From positions 1 through 61,225 of the forward strand of contig JAMFSE010000098.1 of NCBI GenBank assembly GCA_026225115.1: a stretch of DNA of 61,225 nt, written 5' to 3'. The notes under the pieces are model-generated. The model did no database searches, was not told the DNA's origin, and saw only the letters and a list, made by a program, of their open reading frames with translations. Of the stretch, positions 4,136 through 18,464 are shown in pieces. The stretch comes from Rhodovastum atsumiense. Its GTDB lineage: Bacteria; Pseudomonadota; Alphaproteobacteria; Acetobacterales; Acetobacteraceae. The translations under genes and the position numbers were made by a program. How positions within the stretch are numbered: the first letter of the stretch is position 1; each line of letters starts with the position of its first letter.

Positions 4136-5478
4136 ATCTTCCGCCAGCTGGTGCCGGCGGCGGTATCCTCCAGCAAAATCCCATCGGCTTCGAGCGTTTT
4201 TCGGATTTCATCGGCCCTGGAAAAATTCTTCCGCGCCCGCGCTTCCCGGCGCTCAGCGATAAGCGCCTCGATTTTGGCGCCATCGGCATCCCCGCGAAAC
4301 CATTTTTCTGCTCCCTGATTGAACAGGCCAAGAACCTTGCCGGCTGCCAGCATTCCGCCAGCAGCACCGGCATCGCCGGAGAGCGCGGCATCGGCCATGC
4401 CATGCAGCCCGGCAATCGCAGCGGGCGTATTCAGATCGTCGCATAACGCATCAAATATCACCGGCGGAATATCTTGCGCGGGGGCGATACCGGGATGCGC
4501 CGCGATCGCGCGGTAAAACCTGTCCAGCTCCTTCTTTGCTTCCAGCAGCGCGGCGTCGGAGAAATCAAGGGTCGAGCGGTAATGCGATCGGATCAGCAGA
4601 AACCGCACCGCCTCCGCCGGCGCCGCGCCCAGCACCTCCCGCAATGTTTTGAAATTCCCCAGCGATTTGCTCATCTTTTCGCCATTGACGAGCAGCATGT
4701 GGTTATGCACCCAGATATTCGCAAAACCCGATCCGGGAAAGGCACAGCAGGATTGCGCGATCTCGTTTTCATGATGCGGGAAAATCAGATCATCGCCGCC
4801 GCCATGAATATCGAAGCTCTCGCCGAGATGGCGCCATGACATCGCCGAGCATTCGATATGCCAGCCCGGCCGGCCGCGGCCCCAGGGGGACTCCCAGCCC
4901 GGCAGATCGTCCGATGACGGTTTCCAGAGCACGAAATCACCTGGCTCGCGCTTATACGGCGCCACGTCCACCCGCGCTCCGGCGATTAGATCCTCGGGCG
5001 CGTGGCCGGAGAATTTGCCGTATTGCGGATCGGAATTGACGGCGAACAGTACATGGCCCTCGGCTTCGTAGGCATGCCCGCGGGCAATCAGCCGCTCGAT
5101 GATCATGATGATCTCGGCAATATGCGCGGTCGCGCGGGGTTCGATATCCGGCGGCAGCGTGAACAGCGCCGCCATGTCGGCATGGTAATCCGCGGTCGTA
5201 CGGGCTGTGATCGCCGCAATCGGCTCCCCGGTCTCTGCCGCTCGCGCGTTTATCTTGTCATCCACATCGGTGATGTTCCGCACATAGGTTACGCGCGGGT
5301 ACATGATGCGCAGCAAGCGCACCAGAATATCGAACACCACGACATTGCGCGCATTGCCGATATGGGCGAGGTCGTAAACCGTCGGGCCGCACAGATACAC
5401 GCCGACATTCGCCGGATCGATGGGGGTGAAAACTTCCTCGTGCCGGGTGCGGGTGTTATGCAGGGTTAAGCGCGTCAT
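4132..5478 (-). CDS. cysS: Cysteine-tRNA ligase
   Basis: Class I aminoacyl-tRNA synthetase, 448 aa, full length, charging tRNA-Cys in the cytoplasm. HIGN (39-42) and KMSKS (268-272) are the ATP-binding signatures. C30, C210, H235 and E239 match the family's zinc ligands, with the context FPHHENEIAQSCC. The longest open frame begins at a TTG 27 bp further upstream; the ATG at 5478 gives the typical N-terminus (TRLTLHNTRTRHEE) and is preferred. Its stop overlaps the start of the tRNA methyltransferase gene. It is divergent from the M20 peptidase gene, with 46 bp between the starts. Confidence 0.96.
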   Translation of the reverse strand: MTRLTLHNTRTRHEEVFTPIDPANVGVYLCGPTVYDLAHIGNARNVVVFDILVRLLRIMYPRVTYVRNITDVDDKINARAAETGEPIAAITARTTADYHADMAALFTLPPDIEPRATAHIAEIIMIIERLIARGHAYEAEGHVLFAVNSDPQYGKFSGHAPEDLIAGARVDVAPYKREPGDFVLWKPSSDDLPGWESPWGRGRPGWHIECSAMSWRHLGESFDIHGGGDDLIFPHHENEIAQSCCAFPGSGFANIWVHNHMLLVNGEKMSKSLGNFKTLREVLGAAPAEAVRFLLIRSHYRSTLDFSDAALLEAKKELDRFYRAIAAHPGIAPAQDIPPVIFDALCDDLNTPAAIAGLHGMADAALSGDAGAAGGMLAAGKVLGLFNQGAEKWFRGDADGAKIEALIAERREARARKNFSRADEIRKTLEADGILLEDTAAGTSWRKI

Positions 5479-11224: not shown

Positions 11225-14200
11225 TTAGAAAGGTTGGGGAAAGTACGACTGAAGCGGCGCAACTTCAAGACTGCCCGAAATCAGGGCAGCAATGGCATGC
11301 GCGGTGGCGCGCGCGGCGGCAATTGTGGTGAAATTGGGCACGCCGTGGGTCAACGCATCGCGGCGGATATCGTAGCTGTCGGTCACCGACTGGGCGCCAT
11401 GGGCGGTATTGATCACCAGCTGGATGTCGCCGGAGCGGATGGCGTCCACGCAATGCGGCCGGCCTTCCAGCACCTTGTTGATCGATTTTACGGCAATTCC
11501 GGCCTGGGTAAGTCTGGCGGCGGTACCCCGCGTGGCGAGGATCGAAAAACCCATTTCCGCCAGGCGGCGGGCCACCGGCACAATCGCCTCCTTGTCGGAT
11601 TCTTTTACGGACAGGAAGGCGGTGCCGGAAAGCGGTAGTTTTACCCCGGCGCCCAGCTGCGCCTTGGCGAAGGCGCGGGCGAAATTGGTGTCCAGCCCCA
11701 TGACCTCGCCGGTGGACTTCATTTCCGGCCCGAGCAGGGTGTCGACATTGGGGAAGCGGGCGAAGGGGAATACCGCCTCCTTCACGGCCACATGCGCGCG
11801 GGTGACGGTATCATCGAGCTTGAAGGAGGATAGTTTTTCACCGGCCATGACCCGAGCGCCGATTTTGGCGATGGCGACGCCGGTTGCCTTGGCGACGAAC
11901 GGCACCGTGCGGGAGGCGCGCGGGTTAACCTCGAGCACATAGATCAGGTCGTTCTGGATGGCGTATTGCACGTTCATCAGCCCGACGACATTGAGCGCCT
12001 TGGCCATTGCCTCGGTCTCCGCCCGCAATTCCGCGACGATGGCGGGCGAAAGCGAATAAGGCGGGATTGAGCAGGCGGAATCGCCGGAATGGATGCCGGC
12101 TTCCTCGATATGCTCCATCACGCCGGCGACATAGACGGTCTCGCCATCGCAGATGCAGTCGACATCGACTTCCGAGGCTTCGTTCAGGTAGCGATCGATC
12201 AGCACCGGGTTGTCGTTGGAGATGCGCACCACTTCGCGCATGTAACGGCCAAGGCCGTTGCGGTCGTAGAGGATTTCCATGGCGCGGCCGCCCAGCACGT
12301 AAGAGGGGCGGATGATGATGGGGTAGCCGATGCGCTCCGCAATGGCTTCCGCCTGTTCGGCCGAACGGGCGATGCCGTTTTCCGGTTGCCGCAGCCCGAG
12401 CTTTTGCAACAACACGGCAAAGCGCTCGCGGTCTTCGGCGATATCAATGGCGTCCGCGGACGTGCCGAGAATGGGAATGCTGGCTTCAGACAGCGCCTGG
12501 GACAGTTTCAGCGGGGTCTGGCCGCCATACTGCACGATGCAACCAAGAAGTTTGCCGTTCTGCTGTTCGCGGCGGATCAGGCTGATGACGTCTTCGGCGA
12601 ACAGCGGTTCGAAATACAGCCGGTCGGAGGTGTCGTAATCGGTCGAGACCGTTTCGGGGTTGCAATTGACCATGATGGTCTCGTACCCCGCATCGCGCAA
12701 CGCGTAGGCGGCGTGGACGCAGCAGTAGTCGAACTCAATGCCCTGACCGATTCGGTTCGGGCCGCCGCCGAGGATGATGATTTTATCGCGATCGGTGGGA
12801 TTGGCTTCGCAGATCGGCGCGCCGTAGGCGCCTTCATAGGTGCCGTACATATAGGCGGCGACGGAGCTGAATTCGCCGGCCGAGCTGTCGATGCGCTTGT
12901 ACACCGGCACGACGCCGAGTTTGAGGCGGGCGGCGGTGACGGCGGCTTCCTTCTGGCCGCTAAGCTCGGACAGGCGCTTATCGGCGAAGCCAAGAGATTT
13001 CAGTTTGCGCAGCGCAAAGCCGTCGCGCGGAACGCCGTTTTTGCGGACCTCGTTTTCGGCGGCGATGATGGCTTCCATCTGGCGCAGGAACCAGGGGTCG
13101 AACTTGGTGGTCTCGTTGATTTCGGCGACGCTTAATCCCGCGCGCAAGGCCTGGGCGGCCATCAGCAGCCGGTCGGGGCGGGCAAGCGAGAGTGCCGCGC
13201 GGTAGGCATCCGCCGTGCCGTCGCCTGGGGCGGGAATTTCATCGAGGCCGGAGAGCCCGGTTTCCAAACTCCGGAGACCTTTCTGTAGGGCCTCGGCGAA
13301 ATTGCGGCCGATCGCCATGGCTTCGCCGACGGATTTCATCGAGGTGGACAGCAGCGCCGGCGTGCCGGGGAATTTCTCGAAGGTAAACCGGGGTATTTTG
13401 ATGACCACATAGTCGATCACCGGCTCGAAACTTGCAGGCGTGGACATGGTGATATCGTTTTTGAGCTCGTCCAAAGTGTAGCCGACGGCGAGCTTGGCGG
13501 CGATTTTGGCAATCGGAAAGCCGGTTGCTTTCGAGGCCAGCGCCGATGAGCGCGAGACGCGCGGATTCATCTCGATGATCACCATCCGCCCATCCACGGG
13601 GTTGATGCCGAACTGCACGTTGGAGCCGCCGGTATCGACGCCGATTTTCCGCAGGCAGGCGATCGAGGCATCGCGAAGGATCTGGTATTCCTTATCGGTC
13701 AGCGTGAGGGCAGGGGCGACGGTGATGGAATCCCCTGTATGCACGCCCATCGGATCGATATTCTCGATCGAGCAGATGATGATGCAATTGTCCGCGGAAT
13801 CCCGCACGACCTCCATTTCGTATTCTTTCCAGCCCAGCACGCTTTCTTCGATGAGCACTTCATCGGTGGGCGAGGCGTCGATGCCGCCCAAGGCGATGTT
13901 GAAGAATTCCTCGCGATTATAGGCGATGCCACCGCCGGTGCCGCCCAAGGTGAAGGAGGGGCGAATAACCGCGGGCAGGCCGATTTCGGCGAGTGCGGCG
14001 TTCAATTCCTCGCGGTTATGGGCAATCGCACTTTTGGGGCCGGCAATGCCGATTTCGGACATGGCGTCGCGGAATTTCAAGCGGTCCTCGGCGCGGTCGA
14101 TCACCTCGGCCTTGGCGCCGATCAGCTCCACGCCAAGACGCTCTAGCGCACCGGATTTTGCCAGAGCCATCGCGGTATTCAGTGCCGTCTGCCCGCCCAT

Positions 14201-14467
14201 GGTCGGCAACAATGCGTCCGGCTTTTCTCGCAGAATAATCTTCTCGACCATCTCCGGTGTGATCGGCTCGATATAGGTGGCATCCGCCAGCGACGGGTCG
14301 GTCATGATGGTTGCGGGAGTGGAATTGACCAGGATCACCCGGTAGCCTTCCTCGCGCAGCGCTTTACATGCCTGGGCGCCGGAGTAATCAAACTCGCAGG
14401 CCGGGCCTATGACGATTGGCCCAGCACCGATGATCATGATGCTTTTTATATCGGTGCGTTTAGGCAT
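11225..14467 (-). CDS. carB: Carbamoyl-phosphate synthase large subunit
   Basis: 1080 aa, full length. It makes carbamoyl phosphate from bicarbonate, ATP and ammonia delivered by CarA, feeding arginine and pyrimidine synthesis. Two homologous halves each carry an ATP-grasp module. The first has [11 protein letters not shown] and [25 protein letters not shown]; the second has [14 protein letters not shown] and [25 protein letters not shown]. The N-terminus ([37 protein letters not shown]-type) is canonical. The C-terminal ~140 residues form the allosteric MGS-like domain ([19 protein letters not shown]). It lies 240 bp downstream of carA; that gap is filled with hairpins and could set the carB:carA ratio. 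Confidence 0.97.
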
Positions 14468-14491
14468 TTAAAGAAATCCAATCAAGAAAAC

Positions 14492-14531
14492 GCAGGACTC
14501 TGTCCTGCACCCGCTGGGGCCTGGAGGCCCC
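14492..14531 (-). terminator. Tandem hairpins with T-run just upstream of carB
   Basis: Two perfect inverted repeats: GCAGGAC-TCT-GTCCTGC (14492-14508) and GGGGCC-TGGA-GGCCCC (14516-14531). Read towards carB, the second-encountered stem is followed directly by GTTTTCTT, like an intrinsic terminator, only 25 nt before the carB ATG. It may be an attenuator or a leftover terminator/repeat element; which is unknown. Confidence 0.5.
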
Positions 14532-14597
14532 AAACCCCCATTAGTCAAAAACGTTTCTTTGTTCGGTTAAAAGGCTCGTTTCTTCGTCCCGGCCGAG

Positions 14598-14692
14598 TTC
14601 AGGAGCGTGCATAAGCGAAAAATGGTCAAGGCTGGCCGCAGGCCACCGCGCAGCGGTTGCCTTGACGATTTTTCGTGTTGCGCGATGCTGAA
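14598..14692. repeat. Long imperfect palindrome between carB and carA
   Basis: GTTCAG...CTGAAC form the outermost arms. Inside them, CGAAAAATGGTCAAGG (14616-14631) pairs with CCTTGACGATTTTTCG (14660-14675) with one mismatch in 16. The interior has two further small hairpins (TGGCC-GCA-GGCCA and a CCGC...GCGG stem), giving a cruciform-like fold. The compact nested symmetry resembles a REP/MITE-type element or a complex terminator after carA. I recall similar AAAAATGGTCAAGG palindromes in Acetobacteraceae, but cannot verify that here. Confidence 0.65.
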
Positions 14693-14707
14693 CGGTACCG
14701 GGGCACA

Positions 14708-16033
14708 CTATCCCATCATCTCCACAAACCGGCCAAACAGATATCCGGAATCAGAAGGCCCTGGCGATGCCTCAGGGTGATACTGCACCGAAAACACGCG
14801 TTTCGATTTGCACGCGATGCCTTCATTCGAACCATCGAACAGAGACACATGCGTGATCTCAACGCCATCTGGCAATGAATTATGGTCCACAGCAAAGCCG
14901 TGGTTTTGCGACGTGATTTCCACCCTGCCGGTTGCGAGGTCTTTCACCGGCTGATTGGCGCCCCGATGCCCGCGGGGAAGCTTGTAGGTTTTCGCGCCAA
15001 GCGCATGCGCCAGCAATTGGTGGCCGAGGCAAATCCCGAAAATGGGTACGCCGGCATTCATGACCCCCTGGATCGCGGGCACGGCGTAGGCTGCGGTCGC
15101 GGCTGGATCGCCCGGGCCGTTGGAGAGAAACACCCCGTCCGGCTTGTGCCGCAGGATATCCTCAGCTGAGGCTGCGGCCGGCACCACGATCACTTTGCAG
15201 CCAGCACTCGCCAGGCTGCGCAAAATATTCCGTTTGGCGCCGTAATCGACCGCGACAACCGTATGCGTGGTCTCAGGTTCGGCAAATCCGGCTTCCAGGC
15301 TCCAGCGCCCGCCGGTCCATTCGTAGCTCTGGGTGCAGGAAACCTCGGCGGCCAGATCCATGCCGTCCAGTCCGGGCCAGGCGGCGGCCTGGGCTGCGAG
15401 TGCCGCGATGTCGAATTTCTGGTCCGCGGGATAGGCCAGCACCGCGTTCGGGGCGCCGAGGTCGCGGATGCGCAACGTGAGCGCCCGCGTATCAACACCG
15501 GCAATGCCCGGCACGTTCTGCTTTTTCAGCCATTCATCGAGGCTGGCCGTGGCCCGCCAGTTGGCGGGAGCAGAAATATCTTCCTTCGTCACCAGCCCGC
15601 GGGCAGCGATGTTCACCGCCTCGATATCTTCCTCGTTCACGCCCACATTGCCGATATGCGGGAAGGTGAATGTGATGATCTGGCCGGCGAAAGACGGGTC
15701 GGTGAGGGTTTCCTGGTAGCCTGTCATCCCGGTGGAGAAACATAATTCGGCCGGCTTGCTCACCCCAAAGGCGCCAAATCCGCGGCCCCAGAACACGCTA
15801 GCATCCGCCAGCACTAAGGCGGCGGTGGCGCCGGGGGGTACGTCGGTCTCGGCGGACGGTGCAAGCTCTTCCATACCCAGCCCGGTTGCTGCCATAATGG
15901 CAGGCCAATGGCGGGACGGAATGGCGCTCGAACTCCGCCATTTGCGGATTGCGTCCAACGATACCCCGGTCAGCCGGGCAGCTTCGTCCTGCCCGCCTAA
16001 GCGGTCGATGAGCTCGGATATGGATATTGGCAT
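14708..16033 (-). CDS. carA: Carbamoyl-phosphate synthase small subunit with N-terminal HTH-like domain
   Basis: 441 aa glutamine amidotransferase subunit that supplies ammonia to CarB. The CarA body starts near residue 70 (AALVLADASVFWGRGFGAFG). The C-terminal class I GATase domain has the triad C335 (GICLGHQLL), H419 and E421 (QYHPEAS). Residues about 5-52 are an extra module resembling a Cro/YdaS-type helix-turn-helix: a LIDRLGG first helix, DEAARLTGVS, then LDAIRKWRSSSAIPSRHWPAI. Normal CarA is about 380 aa. Alternative ATGs at codons 47 and 54 would remove the module, but the whole open stretch keeps coherent HTH-like sequence, so the long form is preferred. Divergent from yqeY across 79 bp containing two palindromes. 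Confidence 0.93.
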   Translation of the reverse strand: MPISISELIDRLGGQDEAARLTGVSLDAIRKWRSSSAIPSRHWPAIMAATGLGMEELAPSAETDVPPGATAALVLADASVFWGRGFGAFGVSKPAELCFSTGMTGYQETLTDPSFAGQIITFTFPHIGNVGVNEEDIEAVNIAARGLVTKEDISAPANWRATASLDEWLKKQNVPGIAGVDTRALTLRIRDLGAPNAVLAYPADQKFDIAALAAQAAAWPGLDGMDLAAEVSCTQSYEWTGGRWSLEAGFAEPETTHTVVAVDYGAKRNILRSLASAGCKVIVVPAAASAEDILRHKPDGVFLSNGPGDPAATAAYAVPAIQGVMNAGVPIFGICLGHQLLAHALGAKTYKLPRGHRGANQPVKDLATGRVEITSQNHGFAVDHNSLPDGVEITHVSLFDGSNEGIACKSKRVFSVQYHPEASPGPSDSGYLFGRFVEMMG

Positions 16034-16045
16034 GAAATTGGTGTA

Positions 16046-16062
16046 CCGGAATTTATTTCCGT
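16046..16062. promoter_or_regulatory. Palindrome 1 in the carA/yqeY divergent promoter
   Basis: CGGAA-TTTAT-TTCCG is a perfect inverted repeat at 16047-16061, extending to TACCGGAA/TTCCGTTA with one mismatch. It ends 13 bp from the carA start. It shares 16 of 19 positions with the reverse complement of the second palindrome 38 bp away (centre to centre). Confidence 0.6.
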
Positions 16063-16083
16063 TATCAACGAGATAATGTAACG

Positions 16084-16100
16084 CCGGAAATTAACTCCGG
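16084..16100. promoter_or_regulatory. Palindrome 2 in the carA/yqeY divergent promoter
   Basis: CCGGA-AATTAAC-TCCGG, perfect 5-bp arms, ending 13 bp from the yqeY ATG. Its reverse complement (TACCGGAGTTAATTTCCG) nearly repeats palindrome 1, so the pair is arranged symmetrically and each gene sees an equivalent layout. A separate TTATC/GATAA inverted repeat lies between them (16062-16076). Confidence 0.6.
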
Positions 16101-16112
16101 TAAAGGACCAGA

Positions 16113-16568
16113 ATGCCCCTACGCGATGACCTGACCGCTGCCACCAAAACCTCGATGCTGGCGCGGGATGCCGACCGCACCTCTACGCTGCGGATGATCT
16201 CGGCCAAGCTGAAGGATACCGATATCGCCGCCCGCCCGAAGGGGATTGCCGCCATTCCGGATGACGAGATCATCGCCATGCTGCGGTCGATGATCAAATC
16301 CCGGCGCGACGCCGTCACCCTCTACCGACAGGGCAAGCGGGAGGAGCTGGCTGCGAAGGAAGAGGCAGAAATTGCTGTTATTGAAGAATTTTTATCGAAG
16401 ACGCTCATCGGTGATGAGCTGAATGCCGCCATTGCAGATGCCATTGCGGAAACTGGGGCGACCTCGCCCAAGGACATGGGAAAGGTCATCGCCGCGCTCA
16501 AAGCCAAGCACGGCCCGGCTCTGGACATGTCGGTGGCGTCTGGCGCCGTGAAAGCAGCTTTGGGCTAG
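16113..16568 (+). CDS. yqeY: GatB/YqeY domain-containing protein
   Basis: 151 aa YqeY-family protein, related to the tail domain of the GatB subunit of the tRNA-dependent amidotransferase. Typical features are the N-terminal LRDDLTAATKTSMLARDADRTSTLRMISAKLKD, the central RRDAVTLYRQGKREELAAKEEAEIAVIEEFLSK, and the C-terminal GATSPKDMGKVIAALKAKHG. The free-standing protein's molecular role is not firmly known; tRNA binding is inferred from GatB. AAAGGA lies 8 nt before the ATG. It heads a rightward run with dnaG and rpoD, as in many alphaproteobacteria, and shares the palindrome-bearing promoter region with carA. Confidence 0.93.
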   Translation: MPLRDDLTAATKTSMLARDADRTSTLRMISAKLKDTDIAARPKGIAAIPDDEIIAMLRSMIKSRRDAVTLYRQGKREELAAKEEAEIAVIEEFLSKTLIGDELNAAIADAIAETGATSPKDMGKVIAALKAKHGPALDMSVASGAVKAALG

Positions 16569-16574
16569 GAAGAT

Positions 16575-16602
16575 GGATTGCTTCGCTACGCTCGCAATGA
16601 CG
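16575..16602. repeat. REP-like short repeat (GGATTGCTTCGCTACGCTCG type)
   Basis: The gap between yqeY and dnaG holds a 28-bp segment that begins GGATTGCTTCGCTACGCTCG and ends CAATGACG. I recognise this from memory as a dispersed intergenic sequence found in many proteobacterial genomes (reverse form CGTCATTGCGAGCG...). A degenerate version with inverted arms is at 34.83-34.89 kb in this window. Confidence 0.55.
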
Positions 16603-16625
16603 ATTTTGGCAAAGCGTCCAGTTTA

Positions 16626-18464
16626 ATGGCGCTACCGCCAAATTTTCTGGATGAGCTACGCGCCCGCACGCCGCTGCAGGCGCTGATCGGCCGCAGCGTC
16701 CGGCTGACGCGCTCGGGCCGGGAATCCAAAGGCTGCTGTCCGTTCCATGGCGAGAAGACACCGTCTTTCTATGTATATGACGATCACTTCCATTGCTTCG
16801 GCTGCGGCGAGCACGGGGACGCCATCACTTTCGTCATGAAATCGCAGGGCGCCGGCTTCATGGAGGCGGTTGAAAGCCTGGCTGCCGAGGCCGGGCTGGA
16901 GGTTCCGAAAGCCAGCCCTGCGGAGGCCGAACGCGAGGCCAGGCGCGCCAGCATCCATGAGGTGCTGCAGGCGGCGGCGAAAACCTATCAGGACTGGCTG
17001 TTCGCACCGGGGGGCGCAGGAGCGCTGAGCTACCTCCGAGAACGGGGACTATCGGAAGCGACCATCAAAAAATTCGGACTGGGCTGGTCCGGCGAGGGCA
17101 GGGGCGCACTCGCCGCGGCCGTTGCCCGCCAAAACATACAGACGGACCAGCTGATTGAGGCCGGGCTGATGAAGCAAAGCGAAGCCGGCCGAGGCCCGGT
17201 CGACATGTTCTTCTCGCGCGTCATGTTTCCGATCCAGGACCGCCGCGGCGCCATCACCAGTTTTTCCGGCCGAATTCTCGGCGACGGCCAGCCTAAATAC
17301 GTCAACGGCCCGGAAACCCCGGCATTTTCCAAACGCCGCTCGCTGTTTGGCGTCCATTTCGCCCGCGAGGCGGTGCGCAAGGGCGAGGCATTGATCATCG
17401 TCGAAGGCCAGATGGACGTGATCGCGCTGTCGCAAGCAGGATTTGGCGGCGCGGTCGCGCCGTTGGGCACTGCACTGACCGAGGAGCAACTCGCGGAAAT
17501 CTGGAATCTCAGCCCGGAACCGGTGATCTGCTTCGATGCCGACAAAGCCGGCCGGAAAGCCGCCATGCGGGCGGTCGATCTGGCGCTGGCGGGGCTGGCG
17601 CCGGACCGTTCGCTCCGATTTTTGCGCCTGCCGGATGGCCAGGACCCCGATAGCCTGGTCCGGGCGCAAGGGCCGGCCGGGTTTCAGGCACAACTGGGCG
17701 ATGCGGCGCCGCTCTCGTCGGTATTGTTCGACATGCTCGCCGAAGGGGCGATCCGCGAAACGCCGGAGGGCCGCGCGGCGCTTCGGAAAAAACTGATGGA
17801 AATCGCTGACCGCATCACGGACAAATCGCTTGCCGGCGAATACCGGGCCATGCTGCTGGACCGGTTTTTTGCCGAACGCCGCAGCCCATCGGGGAAGGGC
17901 GGAGCCTCACAGCGAAATGGCGGTTTTGCCGGTCGCGCTCCGAATGCAGCGGCAAAACCCGCGATGCGCCCGGTCCGGGTCCCAATTGATCCAGCCAGCG
18001 CCGATATTGAGCGCGGCCGTATCCTGACCGCTATCCTAATCAATCACCCGACCTTGCTGCCGGATGTCGAGGAAGCCTTCGCGCTGATCGATCTGCCGCC
18101 GGCTTATGAACGCCTGCGCAACGCTTTCGCAAAGTTTCATGACAGCAATGTCACTCTTGACTCACCCGGCCTGCTCAACCACTTAGACGAATCCGGGTTG
18201 ATGGCTGTCGCTGGCCAGGTTCTGGCGATGTCTCCCCTACCGGCCTGTGCCGCTCCGGCGGCGACTTTGGCGGAAGCAGCGAATGGGTGGTGGGAGATGT
18301 TCGGTCTGATGAGAGCAAGCCGCAATAGACTGCGCGAGCAACGCGACGAACAGCAGCGCAGCTACCTCGAAAACCCGGCCGACCCCGTCGCGGTCGAAAA
18401 ACTGATCAAACTGAACGCCGCCCTATCCCGGGCCGAGCGGGCGGAACGGGATGCAGACGGCTAA
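16626..18464 (+). CDS. dnaG: DNA primase
   Basis: 612 aa primase that lays down RNA primers at the replication fork. The N-terminal CHC2 zinc finger has C38, H41, C57 and C60 (CCPFHGEKTPSF...HCFGCGEHGD). The catalytic core contains the Toprim motif IIVEGQMDVIALSQAGF and FDADKAGRKAA. The C-terminal ~150 residues form the DnaB-interacting domain. The ATG at 16626 gives the standard start (ALPPNFLDELRARTPL); the open frame continues upstream into the short repeat with no similarity to primase. Followed by rpoD, the macromolecular-synthesis order seen widely in bacteria (here with yqeY rather than rpsU in front). Confidence 0.96.
   Translation: MALPPNFLDELRARTPLQALIGRSVRLTRSGRESKGCCPFHGEKTPSFYVYDDHFHCFGCGEHGDAITFVMKSQGAGFMEAVESLAAEAGLEVPKASPAEAEREARRASIHEVLQAAAKTYQDWLFAPGGAGALSYLRERGLSEATIKKFGLGWSGEGRGALAAAVARQNIQTDQLIEAGLMKQSEAGRGPVDMFFSRVMFPIQDRRGAITSFSGRILGDGQPKYVNGPETPAFSKRRSLFGVHFAREAVRKGEALIIVEGQMDVIALSQAGFGGAVAPLGTALTEEQLAEIWNLSPEPVICFDADKAGRKAAMRAVDLALAGLAPDRSLRFLRLPDGQDPDSLVRAQGPAGFQAQLGDAAPLSSVLFDMLAEGAIRETPEGRAALRKKLMEIADRITDKSLAGEYRAMLLDRFFAERRSPSGKGGASQRNGGFAGRAPNAAAKPAMRPVRVPIDPASADIERGRILTAILINHPTLLPDVEEAFALIDLPPAYERLRNAFAKFHDSNVTLDSPGLLNHLDESGLMAVAGQVLAMSPLPACAAPAATLAEAANGWWEMFGLMRASRNRLREQRDEQQRSYLENPADPVAVEKLIKLNAALSRAERAERDADG

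What the first reader, a model, noticed from the sequence alone, without database searches (positions are those of the whole stretch)
15869..16033. CarA carries an N-terminal helix-turn-helix-like domain
Residues 1-55 of the CPSase small subunit form a complete Cro/YdaS-like HTH ahead of a normal CarA that begins near residue 70. A DNA-binding-like module fused to a metabolic enzyme suggests a moonlighting regulator, so carbamoyl-phosphate supply might be sensed and fed back to DNA directly. I vaguely recall a short HTH-like domain annotated as 'carph-isopro' in NCBI families, so the fusion itself may already be noted in databases, but its function is, to my knowledge, undescribed.
Basis: partly seen in the sequence, partly recalled or inferred. 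Interest (0 to 1): 0.8.

Follow-up and report, generated by a model that had tools for sequence, protein, structure and literature searches.

The report
Enzyme that likely represses itself
In acetic acid bacteria and their relatives, one subunit of an enzyme that starts arginine and pyrimidine synthesis carries a phage-repressor-like DNA-binding head, and its own promoter carries a matching pair of sites, so the enzyme probably controls its own gene directly.

Summary
CarA (14708-16033, minus) has a complete N-terminal Cro/YdaS-like HTH (NF046037 "carphisopro", residues 5-57) before a normal CarA that starts near residue 71. The fusion is family-wide: 152 of 156 carA upstream regions studied encode it in frame, while none of 27 carA genes from other families does.

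The new part is the target. A 17-nt palindrome with a GGAA-N5-TTCC core stands upstream of carA in 146 of 152 HTH-carA genes and 0 of 27 HTH-less ones. The window has two copies (16046-16062, 16084-16100). In 97 of 152 loci the gene-proximal copy exactly fills the 17-bp spacer of a TTGnnn/nAnnnn promoter whose predicted start coincides with the ATG. A second copy lies 38-40 bp upstream in 91 of 127 two-site loci. The one genus that lost the HTH lost the palindrome. Perfect copies elsewhere in 80 genomes are near background, apart from one repeat.

Best reading: CarA is an enzyme and the autorepressor of carAB. DNA binding, direction of control and any metabolite sensed are inferred, not shown.

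The parts
14708..16033 (-). carA, carbamoyl-phosphate synthase small subunit with N-terminal HTH (441 aa)
   Evidence: TIGR01368 at residues 71-440
15863..16021 (-). Cro/YdaS-like HTH domain (carphisopro), residues 5-57
   Evidence: NF046037; model
15929..15958 (-). predicted recognition helix, residues 26-35 (contains W32 and S34)
   Evidence: DSSP of the model; covariation
15824..15862 (-). linker between HTH and CarA body, residues 58-70; length varies in relatives
   Evidence: pLDDT under 50 at 58-63
16046..16062 (.). proximal operator, ACGGAAATAAATTCCGG on the carA strand; fills the promoter spacer
16084..16100 (.). distal operator, CCGGAGTTAATTTCCGG on the carA strand; 38 bp from the proximal one
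16063..16068 (-). -35 element TTGATA of the carA promoter (predicted)
16040..16045 (-). -10 element TACACC of the carA promoter (predicted); ATG six bases further, hence a leaderless mRNA is predicted
11225..14467 (-). carB (large subunit), downstream of carA on the same strand, 240-bp gap
   Evidence: carB-like gene found within the flank and on the same strand in 64 of 80 named relatives
16113..16568 (+). divergent gene, YqeY-like (name recalled); its ATG is 12 bases beyond the distal operator
   Evidence: divergent homologue in 73 of 80 named relatives

Best explanation
CarA of this family (Acetobacteraceae) is a trigger enzyme: a working glutamine-amidotransferase subunit that also binds DNA through a phage-Cro-type HTH. 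Two HTHs, paired by CarA/CarAB oligomerisation or by Cro-like helix packing, bind a 17-bp palindrome lying between the -35 and -10 boxes of the carA promoter, shut out RNA polymerase and so repress the leaderless carA-carB transcript. A second palindrome about 39 bp upstream is bound together with it. Shown by sequence: the HTH, its conservation, the operators, their place in the promoter, their association with the HTH, their near-exclusive presence at carA. Inferred: binding, repression rather than activation, cooperativity, and control by ligands or assembly state.
For: GGAA-N5-TTCC in 146 of 152 HTH-carA upstreams (200 nt; 145 of 152 in 150 nt), at most 8 for any other spacer from 0 to 12, and 0 of 27 HTH-less carA upstreams of 150 nt. 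In 97 of 152 loci the operator is the 17-bp promoter spacer: the hexamer before it begins T, T, G in 99, 94 and 96%, the one after it has A at position 2 in 92%; Gluconobacter oxydans promoters mapped by RNA sequencing read ttGnnn and nAtnnn (PMC5756330, passages). Second site at 38-40 bp in 91 of 127 two-site loci, in both promoter layouts (60 of 84 and 31 of 43). Operators stay beside carA whatever the distance to the divergent gene. Perfect TGGGAA-N5-TTCCCA in 80 family genomes: 79 sites in 50 genomes, 75 listed, of which 55 at carA, 11 copies in one genome, 9 elsewhere; reversed control 7. HTH and operator both absent in the one genus without the HTH. The best solved sequence relatives are Cro proteins, also among the top fold matches. 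Catalytic motifs CLGHQ and HPE kept in 80 of 80 named relatives.
Against: No binding or expression data. 30 of 80 genomes have no perfect Gln-type palindrome anywhere; their sites are imperfect or of the other type. Covariation is weak after allowing for descent: residue 34 changes 5 times on the tree, and of 3 independent pairs on well supported branches 1.7 go the expected way, 0.0 against, 1.3 show no difference on average; not significant. 15 of 91 Gln-34 proteins have the C-type operator, and residue 10, outside the HTH pair, is almost as informative as the best three columns. The joint loss is one event in a genus of two genomes. In 55 of 152 loci, acetic acid bacteria among them, the proximal site is not next to the ATG and its relation to the promoter was not settled. 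PDB and Foldseek E-values are weak (0.0033-0.053 and from 0.042). The consensus promoter scan found no promoter in the window.
Confidence: 0.8

Rival explanations
1. The palindromes are operators of a separate repressor of carAB; the HTH of CarA does something else, such as contacting a protein, or is a relic.
For: No binding was tested, and Gln-34 proteins occur with both operator types.
Against: Operators go with the HTH: absent from 27 HTH-less carA upstreams outside the family and from the one genus inside it that lost the HTH. The site is almost carA-only, as expected for self-control. The HTH keeps its recognition helix (A28, R30, K31, W32 invariant in 51 sequences), unlike a relic.
Confidence: 0.13
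2. CarA binds the operators but activates, or acts on both carA and the divergent gene, for example as a bridge between the two promoters.
For: The distal site is 12 bases from the divergent gene's ATG in the window, and a divergent homologue is present in 73 of 80 relatives.
Against: The distance to the divergent gene varies from under 100 to over 1000 bases among the 40 of 73 distances printed, while the operators keep their place at carA. A site inside a normal 17-bp spacer is a usual repressor position (established knowledge).
Confidence: 0.2
3. Translation really starts at codon 47 or 54, or the HTH is an unused upstream reading frame.
For: ATG codons exist at 47 and 54.
Against: In-frame HTH in 152 of 156 loci, domain conservation and a promoter that places the transcript start at the first ATG in 97 loci.
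Confidence: 0.02

Closest known systems
NCBIfam NF046037 carph-isopro domain
   Same: The HTH is a member by score (62.7 bits against 38); 'carph' in its name presumably points to this fusion (inference).
   Different: A domain entry without function, target or mechanism in what I saw; no paper with the term in the library.
Phage Cro repressors (N15, Xfaso 1, P22 Cro)
   Same: Best solved sequence relatives and among the top fold matches; both go with palindromic operators (for Cro: PMC4997575, passages, and established knowledge).
   Different: Cro is a free-standing phage protein; here the module heads a metabolic enzyme and the operator lies in that enzyme's own promoter.
Trigger enzymes with a fused DNA-binding domain (PutA, NadR, BirA as recalled)
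   Same: Enzyme and DNA-binding domain in one chain with a presumed own-promoter target; the class is described in PMC3901225 (passages).
   Different: Different enzyme, a Cro-type HTH, and no known effector. PutA, NadR and BirA come from memory; a search for the three together gave no paper.
Known carAB regulators (ArgR; PepA, PurR, RutR recalled)
   Same: They act at carAB promoters; ArgR-carAB in gammaproteobacteria is in PMC5343134 (passages).
   Different: Separate proteins with other motifs (motifs not compared here).

Membership tests
NF046037 carph-isopro domain | score above the curated cut-off | tested here: met
   62.7 bits against 38
Glutamine-dependent CPSase small subunit (TIGR01368) | score above cut-off and catalytic Cys/His motifs | tested here: met
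   447.3 bits against 307.35; CLGHQ and HPE in the window protein and in 80 of 80 relatives
YdaS_toxin PF15943 / P22_Cro PF14549 | score above Pfam gathering cut-off | tested here: not met
   29.3 against 30 and 21.6 against 30.2: resembles, not filed as a member
Cro-type HTH fold | helical HTH matching solved Cro structures | tested here: inconclusive
   model pLDDT 82.9; Cro chains among the best matches, but E 0.04 and above
Trigger enzyme / autoregulating enzyme | DNA-binding domain in the same chain as an intact enzyme | tested here: met
   by sequence only
Trigger enzyme / autoregulating enzyme | binding site at the own promoter | tested here: inconclusive
   operator found and associated with the HTH; binding itself not testable here
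Trigger enzyme / autoregulating enzyme | DNA binding switched by substrate, product or assembly | not testable with these tools
   needs biochemistry

The most novel reading that the evidence does not exclude
The whole CPS oligomer is the repressor: HTHs on neighbouring CarA subunits of one CarAB oligomer span the two operators about 39 bp (or roughly one helical turn more, 48-50 bp) apart, and the same allosteric ligands that set CPS activity or assembly (UMP, ornithine, IMP) open or close this clamp, so flux control and gene control share one protein without any separate transcription factor.
Probability: 0.35. Interest if true: 0.87.

Novelty: new variant of a known kind. Interest (0 to 1): 0.74.

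Why it matters
CPS makes the shared precursor of arginine and pyrimidines and is a classic object of regulation. How this family, which includes industrially used acetic acid bacteria, controls carAB was not found in the papers searched (open-licence PMC only). The answer may be the enzyme itself. The operator makes this directly testable with one gel shift and one reporter strain, and offers a first function for a domain that I found only as a database entry.

Tried and rejected
A blind best-palindrome score (17-mers, 150 nt) gave at least 7 of 8 pairs in 65 of 152 HTH-carA upstreams, 3 of 27 controls and 135 of 1520 shuffles; the spacer-specific test was far sharper. With one core mismatch allowed, mononucleotide-shuffled upstreams match in 199 of 3040, against 152 of 152 real ones. 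Control upstreams were 150 nt and HTH upstreams 200 nt; cut to 150 nt the HTH count is 145 of 152.

Further targets: in the window's genome the one-mismatch C-type pattern has 29 sites against 26 for the reversed control, two of them at carA, so no wider regulon is supported. The residue-34/operator covariation is not significant once descent is counted. Helical phasing of the second site is only suggested: 48-50 bp in 9 of 127, none at 45-47. Rfam has no hit at 14300-16700, so no known RNA element explains the palindromes.

Rows dropped: of 149 family genomes with a match, six with only fragmentary or paralogous hits (G019, G026, G039, G069, G110, G146) were not used; 143 plus 13 make the 156. 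Four of 156 gave no in-frame HTH (L151, L157, L176, L177): L157 is cut by a contig end; in L151 I read the HTH by eye in another frame of the DNA printed; L176 and L177 lack it. Starts of L013 and L017 were set by hand to the HTH start. One of 28 control loci (L204) had no anchor; some control starts are rough. L205 matched a loose HTH expression, but its frame shows no HTH. The alignment of one control (L211) began at residue 28, but its frame shows no HTH. For the tree, 132 loci were found and 117 kept (identical proteins and site-less loci dropped). A regex labelled 20 of 80 loci 'not CarA'; all 20 have CarA length and both catalytic motifs. A YqeY expression found 0 of 33 and was replaced by tblastn.

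Full report
The observation. The minus-strand ORF 14708-16033 encodes a 441-aa CarA. Its residues 5-57 match NCBIfam NF046037 'carphisopro' well above cut-off, and the CPSase small-subunit model starts at residue 71. Pfam's YdaS_toxin and P22_Cro fall below their cut-offs. AlphaFold gives a compact helical domain with helices 15-22 and 26-35 as the HTH pair (mean pLDDT 82.9). In the full-length model (22 sequences, mean pLDDT 66.3, poor at residues 84-186) the linker is of low confidence. A profile of 51 HTHs finds Cro of phage N15, the XPH1 hybrid of two Cro proteins, Cro of Xfaso 1 and P22 Cro as the best four solved relatives (E 0.0033-0.053). Foldseek with the HTH model puts the 434 repressor domain and the N15, Xfaso 1 and P22 Cro chains on top (E 0.042 and above).

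Distribution. Of 150 genomes drawn from the window's family, 149 have a match to CarA (six of these matches are fragments or paralogues). Where the alignment began later than residue 35, reading the frame upstream usually showed the HTH with a longer linker. Of 156 upstream regions studied, 152 carry the HTH in frame; of the other four one is cut by a contig end, one shows the HTH in another frame, and two, the only two genomes held of one small-genome genus, lack it. Of 96 genomes drawn from the class, 81 (two of them from the family) have a match of some kind. I took 28 of the non-family carA loci: 27 had an anchor, and none of the 27 encodes the HTH in frame. Elsewhere in the class the domain occurs too (52 of 289 genomes over cut-off, four of the 289 from the family), but in the 29 non-family loci fetched it heads proteins without CarA motifs, mostly mitofilin-like ones (name recalled); the other non-family matches were not looked at. 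A scan of named genomes with the HTH alignment confirmed 345 stretches; the best 80, all that were returned, are CarA fusions with both catalytic motifs, from Acetobacter, Komagataeibacter, Acidiphilium, Acidocella, Rhodopila, Acidisoma and others. The window's genus is probably Acidocella: the carA contig of G068, same genus, has the length and position of the Acidocella sp. KAb 2-4 record (inference).

The operator. Two similar palindromes lie upstream of the window's carA. In 200 nt upstream of 152 HTH-carA genes, GGAA-N5-TTCC occurs in 146, and with one core mismatch in all 152; no other spacer from 0 to 12 exceeds 8; none of 27 HTH-less upstreams (150 nt) has it, even with one mismatch. 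Half-sites read mostly TGGGAA where residue 34 is Gln and mostly CCGGAA where it is Ser, as in the window. In 97 of 152 loci the site nearest the gene ends within 15 bases of the ATG; the hexamer before it begins T, T, G in 99, 94 and 96%, and the one after it has A at position 2 in 92%. This agrees with promoters mapped in Gluconobacter oxydans, -35 ttGnnn and -10 nAtnnn (PMC5756330, passages; that text does not mention carA). The palindrome is thus the promoter spacer, and the transcript should begin at or next to the ATG. In the window this reads TTGATA, ACGGAAATAAATTCCGG, TACACC, AATTTC, ATG.

Two sites. 127 of 152 loci have two sites; their spacing is 38, 39 or 40 bp in 91 and 48-50 bp in 9. 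The 38-40 spacing is as common where the pair sits farther from the ATG (31 of 43) as in the main layout (60 of 84). A spacing kept across two layouts suggests a constraint from the bound protein. A divergent homologue of the window's neighbour gene is present in 73 of 80 named relatives, at distances from under 100 to over 1000 bases among the 40 printed, while the operators keep their place at carA.

Who binds it. Presence and absence go together with the HTH outside the family and in the genus that lost it (one event). The site is nearly exclusive: in 80 family genomes the perfect Gln-type palindrome has 79 sites, in 50 genomes; 75 were listed, of which 55 lie at carA, 11 are copies in one genome and 9 lie elsewhere, against 7 for the reversed control (assignment by my comparison with the coordinates). 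Residues 34, 25 and 36, in or beside the recognition helix, are the three of 40 columns with most information on operator base 2 (0.263, 0.224, 0.223 bits), but residue 10 follows closely (0.216), and the association is not significant once descent is counted. The idea of such correlations for Cro proteins is that of Hall and colleagues (cited in PMC4997575, passages; their paper not read).

Mechanism. A site that fills a normal promoter spacer is a usual place for a repressor (established knowledge). carB follows carA on the same strand in the window and in all 64 of 80 relatives where it was found within the flank. I therefore take CarA to repress carAB. That a ligand, or the balance of free CarA and CarAB, switches binding is expected for such an enzyme but rests on analogy only.

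Known or new. The fusion is already implied by an NCBIfam domain name. Six searches on the topic turned up no description of its function or operator; five gave no paper, and one search gave six, of which I looked only at passages of PMC5343134. Subscription papers and preprints were not covered. [quoted passage not shown] this CarA is, as far as I could find, a new case with a new operator.

Noticed in passing
L034-L063 (without L056): In other alphaproteobacterial families the carphisopro domain heads mostly 400-600-aa mitofilin-like proteins (name recalled). The 450 nt upstream of the domain are rich in GTACG/CGTAC (117 against 25.4 in mononucleotide shuffles; 23 of 29 loci with two or more): perhaps another self-binding fusion with another operator. 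Part of the region is coding and no dinucleotide control was run.
   Followed up: partly
L053, just upstream of the start codon: A carphisopro-headed protein has TTTGTACGTATTTTACGTACAAG close to its ATG, an operator-like palindrome.
   Followed up: no
L176 and L177 (genomes G029, G116): One small-genome genus has lost both the HTH and the operator of carA, a natural deletion experiment.
   Followed up: yes
genome G072, 11 places: TGGGAA-N5-TTCCCA occurs in 11 copies with nearly the same spacer, as if inside a dispersed repeat.
   Followed up: no
genome G176, C1:1546-1704, 4140-4298 and 4597476-4597634: Three equally scoring carphisopro matches in long frames near the contig ends.
   Followed up: no
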